This document shows, in pieces, positions 394-1,344 of a stretch of 9,083 nt of DNA. Numbering within the stretch: the stretch's first letter is position 1; every line of letters starts with the position of its first letter. Origin of the DNA: an uncultured Streptococcus sp. (lineage in GTDB: Bacteria > Bacillota > Bacilli > Lactobacillales > Streptococcaceae); contig CAKPXD010000053.1 in NCBI GenBank assembly GCA_934201655.1, positions 1 through 9,083 on the forward strand, read 5' to 3'. The notes under the pieces are model-generated. The model was not told the DNA's origin. It searched no databases and saw nothing but the letters and a program-made list of their open reading frames with translations. The position numbers and the translations under genes are program-made.

Positions 394-1344
394 GTGGAAA
401 AAAGAGACAATCAGACAAAAACAGCTATTTGCGGTATTATCAATGTCACCCCAGATTCTTTTTCTGATGGGGGCCAATTTTTTGCTATTGAAGAAGCCTT
501 AAAACAGGCTCGAAAATTGATAGCTGAAGGTGCTACTATCTTAGATATCGGTGGAGAATCTACTCGACCTGGAAGTAGCTATGGCTATGTTGAGATTGAA
601 GAGGAAATCCAACGTGTGGTTCCAGTTATTCAGGCTATCCGTCAAGAAAGTGATGTTTTGATTTCAGTCGACACATGGAAAAGTCAAGTTGCAGAAGCAG
701 CTCTAAAAGCGGGTGCCAATATAGTCAATGACATTACAGGTCTCATGGGTGACGAGAAGATGGCGGAGGTGGTTGCGAAAGCAGAAGCTCAAGTCGTCAT
801 CATGTTTAATCCAGTCATGGCACGCCCTCAGCACCCTAGTTCACTTATCTTCCCTCATTTTGGCCTTGGAGAGCCTTTTAAAAAGGAAGACTTAGATGAG
901 TTTGAAAAACTACCAGTAGAAGAATTGATGACAGCTTTCTTTGACCGTGCTCTAGTAAGAGCGGAAAAAGCAGGAATTTCGAAAGAAAAGATCATGCTAG
1001 ATCCTGGGATTGGCTTTGGCTTGACCAAAAAGGAAAATCTGCTACTTCTACGTGACCTTGATAAATTACACGAGATGGGCTATCCTATCTTTTTAGGAGT
1101 TTCTCGCAAGCGCTTTGTCATCAATATTCTGGAAGAAAATGGTTTTGAAGTAAATCCAGAAACTGAAACTGGTTTCCGCAATCGTGATACGGCTTCAGCT
1201 CATGTGACCAGTATCGCCGCTAGACAGGGTGTAGAAGTTGTGCGTGTACACGATGTAGCCAGCCACAAGATGGCAGTTGAAATCGCATCAGCCATCCGTC
1301 TGGCAGATGATGCGGAAAATTTAAACTTGAAACAGTATAAATAA
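394..1344 (+). CDS. folP: Dihydropteroate synthase (FolP/SulA) with a two-residue loop insertion
   Basis: Condenses 6-hydroxymethyl-7,8-dihydropterin pyrophosphate with p-aminobenzoate to give 7,8-dihydropteroate; it is the target of sulfonamides. Family motifs are in order: GIINVTPDSFSDGG (14-27, loop 1), GGESTRPGSS (53-62, loop 2), DTWK, NDITG, DPGIGFG, LGVSRKRF (pterin/sulfonamide-site Lys and Arg) and the terminal RVHDV strand. I chose the GTG at 394: GTGAT at 385-389 matches the 16S anti-Shine-Dalgarno complement just upstream, and the resulting 316 residues align end to end with the 314-residue pneumococcal enzyme as I recall it, plus a 2-residue insertion. An alternative GTG at 385 gives 319 residues but has no ribosome-binding site. 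The odd feature is loop 2, which reads RPGSSYGYVEIEEE rather than RPGSSYVEIEEE, as discussed in the findings. First gene of the operon; folC begins 1 base after its stop. Confidence 0.96.
   Translation: MEKRDNQTKTAICGIINVTPDSFSDGGQFFAIEEALKQARKLIAEGATILDIGGESTRPGSSYGYVEIEEEIQRVVPVIQAIRQESDVLISVDTWKSQVAEAALKAGANIVNDITGLMGDEKMAEVVAKAEAQVVIMFNPVMARPQHPSSLIFPHFGLGEPFKKEDLDEFEKLPVEELMTAFFDRALVRAEKAGISKEKIMLDPGIGFGLTKKENLLLLRDLDKLHEMGYPIFLGVSRKRFVINILEENGFEVNPETETGFRNRDTASAHVTSIAARQGVEVVRVHDVASHKMAVEIASAIRLADDAENLNLKQYK
583..588 (+). other. folP: Six-base in-frame insertion in the FolP sulfonamide-site loop
   Basis: Codons 61-66 read AGT AGC TAT GGC TAT GTT. Compared with the usual SSYV arrangement, one Gly-Tyr (or equivalently Tyr-Gly) pair is extra. 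GCTAT occurs twice in tandem 6 bases apart (578-582 and 584-588), as expected from a 6-bp duplication of AGCTAT followed by an A-to-G change (Ser to Gly). The comparison rests on remembered pneumococcal, E. coli and B. subtilis sequences, which all have six residues between the G of STRPG and the following EEE-type acidic run; here there are eight. Confidence 0.75.

What the first reader, a model, noticed from the sequence alone, without database searches (positions are those of the whole stretch)
565..591. Sulfonamide-resistance-type insertion in chromosomal FolP
Seen: loop 2 reads RPGSSYGYVEIEEE, with eight residues between the G of STRPG and the acidic run, and tandem GCTAT copies at 578-582 and 584-588. 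Known: in S. pneumoniae, in-frame insertions of one or two residues in the Arg58-Tyr63 region of DHPS cause sulfonamide resistance; with the GTG at 394 as start, the numbering here falls on exactly those residues (Arg58, Pro59, Gly60, Ser61, Ser62, Tyr63, then the extra Gly64-Tyr65). Inference: this strain probably has reduced sulfonamide susceptibility, by duplication of AGCTAT plus a later A-to-G change, or by acquisition of a mosaic allele.
Basis: partly seen in the sequence, partly recalled or inferred. Interest (0 to 1): 0.72.

Follow-up and report, generated by a model that had tools for sequence, protein, structure and literature searches.

The report
Six-base duplication in sulfonamide-target loop
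In this Streptococcus infantis-like genome the gene for a folate-making enzyme carries a six-base tandem duplication that adds two amino acids to the loop thought to hold sulfonamide drugs; most close relatives examined lack it, and it likely lowers susceptibility to those drugs, as similar changes do in the pneumococcus.

Summary
FolP (394-1344) reads STRPGSSYGYVEIEEE, two residues (Gly64-Tyr65) longer than STRPGSSYVEIEEE. The S. infantis record ATCC 700779 and 18 of 22 other infantis-like loci have no insertion, so it is derived, not native. All 16 two-codon insertions among 66 streptococcal loci are exact 6-bp tandem duplications in differing registers, and from Cys13 on FolP varies in length only in this loop. 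Reduced sulfonamide susceptibility is inferred. Insertion genomes more often carry the trimethoprim-associated DHFR Leu100 (11/20 against 5/45), but tree-corrected support is weak. The identical loop is published in pneumococcus: two co-trimoxazole-resistant isolates and one susceptible. No donor was found. An unexpected extra: loci with two-residue insertions often also change LDPGIGFG at Pro202 (12/16; 0/5 with one residue; 1/45 without); the window keeps Pro. In a pneumococcal-type protein set the Pro202 link alone is not significant (p 0.14), the whole-motif link is. That motif is a second sulfonamide-discriminating region in E. coli and meningococcus. Ordinary as a resistance-type allele; the paired second site is worth testing.

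The parts
394..1344 (+). folP, dihydropteroate synthase (316 aa from GTG 394; an in-frame GTG also at 385)
   Evidence: NCBIfam TIGR01496 268 bits over cut-off 162.6; best solved relative is S. pneumoniae DHPS 2vef, E 1.4e-173; model TM-score 0.95 (target-normalised) to 2vef_A
565..591 (+). loop 2 segment Arg58-Val66, RPGSSYGYV
   Evidence: AlphaFold2 confidence under 50 at residues 59-62
578..589 (+). perfect tandem duplication GCTATG x2 that adds two codons
583..588 (+). codons of the extra residues Gly64-Tyr65 (placement within the repeat is arbitrary)
1003..1005 (+). Pro204 (Pro202 in pneumococcal and uninserted numbering, Pro186 in E. coli) of the LDPGIGFG motif 997-1020: unchanged in the window, often changed in insertion-bearing relatives
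1346..4072 (+). rest of the folate gene cluster: folC 1346-2644, folE 2648-3202, folBK 3242-4072
   Evidence: NCBIfam matches over cut-off

Best explanation
The folP gene of this S. infantis-like genome carries a derived 6-bp tandem duplication (GCTATG) in loop 2 that adds Gly-Tyr after Tyr63 and likely lowers sulfonamide susceptibility by predicted distortion of the outer pABA/sulfonamide pocket. Shown: the sequence, its absence from most relatives examined, that one duplication accounts for it exactly, the clustering of FolP length changes in this loop, and the statistical links of insertions to DHFR Leu100 and to changes of LDPGIGFG. Inferred: the duplication arose by slippage during replication, drug use selected it, and the longer loop excludes the drug's outer ring while pABA still fits. 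Untested: enzyme kinetics and the MIC of this strain.
For: One-step duplication: 16 of 16 two-codon insertions in 66 named Streptococcus loci, and the window's, are exact 6-bp tandem duplications; 5 of 5 one-codon insertions contain a GAA-register 3-bp tandem, weaker evidence because 3-bp tandems are common. Derived: 19 of 23 infantis-like loci lack any insertion, the ATCC 700779 record among them. Local: from Cys13 to the end, FolP length is constant in 66 loci plus the window once the loop is set aside. Repeated: at least 17 changes of insertion state on a folE+folBK tree. Co-selection: DHFR Leu100 in 11 of 20 insertion genomes against 5 of 45 others, p 3.5e-4, stratified one-sided p 3.9e-4; SPAR10, with the same loop, has Leu100. 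Precedent: in Malawi all sulfamethoxazole-resistant pneumococci had 3- or 6-bp insertions between Arg58 and Ile66 and the 5 susceptible had none (PMC3886935, passages); the exact STRPGSSYGYVEIE loop was in two serotype 6A isolates in Cambodia, both co-trimoxazole resistant (PMC4957771, passages and part of its table).
Against: In Indonesia the one pneumococcus with STRPGSSYGYVEIE was co-trimoxazole susceptible, and 7 of 16 susceptible isolates carried a 6-bp insertion (PMC8604174, passages); co-trimoxazole also depends on DHFR. After correction for descent the Leu100 link is weak: 6.0 pairs for, 1.2 against, of 12, median p 0.125; within infantis-like loci alone 2/4 against 3/19, p 0.19. Five genomes have Leu100 without an insertion. 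The window's own genome is not held, so its DHFR was not seen. A S. infantis folP with no loop insertion was recovered by sulfonamide selection in E. coli (PMC3899262, passages), so the insertion is not the only route.
Confidence: 0.8

Rival explanations
1. The allele was imported by transformation from another streptococcus (mosaic folP) rather than arising in this lineage.
For: folP is less like the sister genomes (94.6% at best) than hyp and ccpA (98.2 and 98.5% at best), and nearest relatives differ along folP; the same loop occurs in 27 of the 120 best protein matches, so donors exist.
Against: No locus examined matches the insertion and its flanks: L003 with the same loop differs 7 bases upstream and 9 downstream, and its folP (93.4%) is no closer than that of uninserted L002 (94.5%).
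Confidence: 0.35
2. The insertion is a neutral length variant of a flexible surface loop, with no effect on drug susceptibility.
For: The loop has low model confidence, and one pneumococcus with the exact loop was co-trimoxazole susceptible.
Against: FolP length change from Cys13 on sits only in this drug-site loop, arises repeatedly, and goes with DHFR Leu100 and with LDPGIGFG changes.
Confidence: 0.15
3. One reading: duplication of AGCTAT (SYSY) followed by A to G.
For: SYSY alleles exist in infantis-like loci L017 and L063.
Against: A single duplication of GCTATG yields the exact sequence, and other alleles (SCSY, SYVY, SSSS) are single duplications in other registers.
Confidence: 0.06

Closest known systems
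Loop 2 insertion alleles of Streptococcus pneumoniae DHPS (Arg58-Glu67 region; STRPGSSYGYVEIE among them)
   Same: Same gene, same loop, same two-residue length; the 14-residue string is identical to one tabulated in Cambodia and Indonesia and occurs in a protein named S. pneumoniae, P0147.
   Different: Host is S. infantis-like; FolP is 80% identical to S. pneumoniae 2vef_A in the structure alignment and 82-86% to the two loci labelled S. pneumoniae; no phenotype measured here.
E. coli DHPS Phe-Gly insertion and N. meningitidis Ser-Gly insertion in the DPGFGFG region
   Same: Six-base in-frame insertion in a chromosomal DHPS at a sulfonamide-discriminating site (PMC10328974, passages).
   Different: Different site: around E. 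coli residues 186-189, not loop 2. It coincides with the second site that covaries with loop 2 insertions in relatives; the window's copy is unchanged.
Acquired Sul1-Sul4
   Same: Dihydropteroate synthase family; resistance by excluding sulfonamides (PMC10328974, abstract passage).
   Different: All four fall far below their NCBIfam cut-offs (66-189 bits against 475-600).

Membership tests
Pneumococcal-type loop 2 insertion DHPS | Chromosomal folP at the head of folC-folE-folBK | tested here: met
   gene order; relatives on chromosome contigs
Pneumococcal-type loop 2 insertion DHPS | One or two extra residues between Arg58 and Ile66 | tested here: met
   two residues
Pneumococcal-type loop 2 insertion DHPS | Insertion repeats adjacent sequence | tested here: met
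   perfect GCTATG tandem
Pneumococcal-type loop 2 insertion DHPS | Absent from uninserted members of the species group | tested here: met
   19 of 23 infantis-like loci uninserted; their susceptibility is unknown
Pneumococcal-type loop 2 insertion DHPS | Raised sulfonamide MIC or Ki | not testable with these tools
   no isolate or enzyme
Loop 2 insertion paired with a changed LDPGIGFG motif | Pro202 to Leu/Ser or Ile204 to Thr beside the insertion | tested here: not met
   window reads LDPGIGFG
Acquired Sul1-Sul4 | Score over the curated cut-off | tested here: not met

The most novel reading that the evidence does not exclude
Sulfonamide adaptation in mitis-group streptococci is a two-site process: a two-residue loop 2 duplication comes first and is then joined by a change in the LDPGIGFG motif (Pro202 to Leu/Ser, or Ile204 to Thr), the same region where E. 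coli and meningococcus put their insertions. The window is caught at the first step, with the duplication but the native motif.
Probability: 0.5. Interest if true: 0.55.

Novelty: new member of a known kind. Interest (0 to 1): 0.38.

Why it matters
Commensal streptococci exchange DNA with the pneumococcus (stated in PMC3899262, passage), so their folP alleles may form part of its resistance reservoir. The register rule (one 6-bp tandem duplication, whose register sets the two added residues) accounts for all 16 two-codon insertions in the 66 named loci without point mutation. If the second-site pairing is real, sequence surveillance that reads only the Arg58-Glu67 stretch misses a linked change, and it offers a direct test of how the enzyme keeps its activity while excluding the drug.

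Tried and rejected
Rejected: native loop of the species (uninserted ATCC 700779 record and 18 other infantis-like loci); AGCTAT duplication plus A-to-G as the likelier route; acquired sul gene; the repeat as evidence in itself (13 tandem-hexamer registers in the window). Led nowhere: an Rfam scan of the window (no match); a tree of 300 FolP proteins for the second-site pairing (too few supported branches: 0.8 pairs for, 0.1 against, of 6, median p 1); searches for a paper naming the second site. One search gave one paper with Pro-202, which is a residue of EF-Tu there (PMC9307801, passages); one search gave none; of the listings only passages of PMC11389379, PMC5311915, PMC10328974 and PMC6057106 were seen. 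The library is open-access only, so absence there is weak evidence. The classic pneumococcal papers (Haasum 2001, Maskell 1997) are not held.

Dropped rows: L035's genome is not held, so it is missing from the DHFR table. L023's DHFR matched in two pieces with an internal stop and was counted as Ile100. Searches dropped 20 of 120 proteins because the motif pattern did not fit; one search recounted all 120. The 10 non-streptococcal loci (L065-L073, L075) were left out of every count. The 17 loci that the parser missed were 4 non-streptococcal and 13 unnamed-genome loci, none of the 66 counted. L018 is missing from the folE+folBK trees (named; the tree has the same number of rows). P0014 and P0074 were dropped, and 2 of 302 rows. 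'Infantis-like' is my grouping (L001-L021, L025, L063: folP at least 87.9% identical to the window at DNA level) and spans several species names. Position 205 printed is residue 204 of the window (slice offset by one).

Full report
What the window is. The 9083 bases hold the end of pgk (recalled name; the ORF 3-254 was not searched), then folP (394-1344), folC, folE and folBK, an ORF without an NCBIfam match, a short reverse-strand ORF, ccpA, a reverse-strand asparaginase-like ORF and a Cof-type hydrolase. Its own assembly is not held. ccpA is 98.2-98.5% identical to S. infantis SPAR10 (L003), ATCC 700779 (L002), L004, L006 and L001 (the last labelled S. pseudopneumoniae), so it is an S. infantis-like genome.

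The observation. FolP reads STRPGSSYGYVEIEEE. Numbered from GTG 394, Arg58 to Val66 lie at 565-591. S. pneumoniae DHPS 2vef has STRPGSSYVEIEEE, and the alignment opens a two-residue gap here. The repeat is a perfect hexamer, GCTATG at 578-583 and 584-589, but the window has 13 tandem-hexamer registers at 8 places (shuffles: mean 2.6, maximum 12 of 200), so the repeat alone proves nothing.

Comparison. Of 76 loci found in named genomes, 66 are streptococcal. Of these, 45 have no insertion, 16 have two extra codons and 5 have one. Among 23 infantis-like loci (my grouping: L001-L021, L025, L063) 4 carry an insertion: L003 SYGY, L007 RPRP, L017 and L063 SYSY. The ATCC 700779 record has the uninserted loop. 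The insertion is thus derived within the group. From Cys13 to the C terminus no other length change exists in 66 loci plus the window.

How it arose. All 16 two-codon insertions, and the window's, are exact 6-bp tandem duplications; the five one-codon ones contain a GAA-register 3-bp tandem, which is weaker evidence since such tandems are common, and one of the five (L049) leaves SGY rather than SSY. The register determines the residues: AGCTAT gives SYSY, GCTATG gives SYGY, GTAGCT gives SCSY, CTATGT gives SYVY, AGTAGC gives SSSS. Slippage as the mechanism is inferred. L003, the only named locus with the same loop, differs from the window 7 bases upstream and 9 bases downstream of the loop and is no closer in folP than uninserted L002. 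That fits independent duplication, or an old shared event broken up by recombination or mutation; the data do not decide. folP is less like sister genomes (94.6% at best) than ccpA, and nearest relatives change along the gene, which is consistent with recombination, but no donor was found.

Does it matter for the drug? Three lines, all indirect. First, precedent: in Malawi every sulfamethoxazole-resistant pneumococcus had a 3- or 6-bp insertion between Arg58 and Ile66 and the five susceptible ones did not (PMC3886935, passages). Second, the exact loop: two Cambodian serotype 6A isolates, both co-trimoxazole resistant (PMC4957771, passages and part of its table); but one Indonesian isolate, susceptible, in a study where 7 of 16 susceptible isolates had a 6-bp insertion (PMC8604174, passages). 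Third, co-selection: DHFR position 100 is Leu in 11 of 20 insertion genomes and 5 of 45 others (p 3.5e-4; stratified by infantis-like or other, one-sided p 3.9e-4). On a folE+folBK tree the insertion needs at least 17 changes, and independent pairs favour the link 6.0 to 1.2 of 12 with median p 0.125, so the link is only suggestive once descent is allowed for. The AlphaFold2 model keeps the DHPS fold (pLDDT 88.6; TM-score 0.95 to 2vef_A by target length, 0.84 by query length) with residues 59-62 under 50. In S. aureus DHPS, modelling placed a loop 2 proline in tight contact with the methylisoxazole ring of sulfamethoxazole and only loosely in the pABA pocket (PMC6057106, passages); that a longer loop disturbs this contact is my inference.

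A second site. Scanning the FolP columns for association with the insertion put one column far ahead: Pro202 (window residue 204) in LDPGIGFG, changed to Leu or Ser in 12 of 21 insertion loci and 1 of 45 others (p 6.6e-7; next column p 0.007). It goes with two-codon insertions (12 of 16), not one-codon (0 of 5). In the 120 best proteins found with the window as query, 31 of 72 against 1 of 48. In the 120 found with the L062 query, any change of the motif is 33 of 83 against 2 of 37 (p 6.4e-5); but there Pro202 alone is 13 of 83 against 2 of 37, p 0.14, and 20 of the 33 are Ile204 to Thr, 18 of these with one loop allele and so perhaps one clone. Both protein sets are capped best-hit lists, and 5 of the 240 proteins are identical to a locus protein. 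Over 285 distinct proteins the motif is changed in 64 of 148 with two extra residues, 1 of 15 with one and 4 of 122 with none. Ten of 22 loop strings with an insertion show it (20 if two that differ only beyond the inserted stretch are merged), which speaks against simple hitch-hiking. On the folE+folBK tree independent pairs run 6.5 to 0.0 of 11 (median p 0.016); on a folP tree without both sites 4.3 to 0.0 of 8 (median p 0.125); a 300-protein tree was uninformative. Among insertion carriers the second-site change is not linked to DHFR Leu100 (6 of 11 with it, 5 of 9 without, p 1), which gives no support to a drug-driven reading over a compensatory one. Pro202 aligns with E. coli Pro186 (residue counted by hand). 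In E. [quoted passage not shown] So the two sites are two known sulfonamide-discriminating places of the enzyme, found together in these streptococci. Whether the second change compensates for the loop or adds to drug exclusion cannot be told from sequence. All four insertion-bearing infantis-like loci have Leu or Ser here; the window keeps Pro, as do 14 of 22 distinct SSYGYVE proteins, the window included.

Verdict. A real, derived loop 2 duplication of a known resistance kind in a commensal-type streptococcus; phenotype inferred, not shown. The second-site pairing is the novel lead; four searches of open-access text did not turn up a paper naming it (only listings and the passages named above were seen).

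Noticed in passing
997-1020 and related loci (L003, L007, L017, L024, L030, L031, L035, L036, L050, L051, L058, L063): The LDPGIGFG motif (native in the window) is changed at Pro202 to Leu or Ser in 12 of 16 loci with two-codon loop insertions, 0 of 5 with one codon and 1 of 45 without.
   Followed up: yes
P0121-P0240 set (e.g. P0131, P0135, P0151): Proteins with an added Glu-Glu (SSYVEIEEEEEI) carry Ile204 to Thr in the same motif in 18 of 24 cases; perhaps one clone.
   Followed up: partly
262-289 and 327-355: An intrinsic-terminator-like hairpin and a promoter-like site just before folP; in pneumococcus, changes in an upstream terminator go with raised sul operon expression (PMC11389379, passages).
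   Followed up: no
L006: An S. infantis locus with Ser at position 202 but no loop insertion, the only one of 45 uninserted loci; perhaps a lost insertion or a recombinant.
   Followed up: no
L011, L016, L021, L037, L045 genomes: DHFR Leu100 without any folP loop insertion.
   Followed up: no
L132, L133 (genome of L023): The DHFR gene of this genome matched in two pieces with an internal stop, so it may be broken or misassembled.
   Followed up: no
L001, L009, L014, L015: Records labelled S. pseudopneumoniae whose FolP is 91-97% identical to the S. infantis-like window; probably mislabelled.
   Followed up: no
P0011, P0051, P0054, P0073, P0090, P0091: Loop allele SSYVKVKI, a two-residue insertion with Glu replaced by Lys; all six keep the LDPGIGFG motif.
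   Followed up: no
4056-5339: A 427-aa ORF overlapping the end of folBK by 17 bases, with no NCBIfam match.
   Followed up: no
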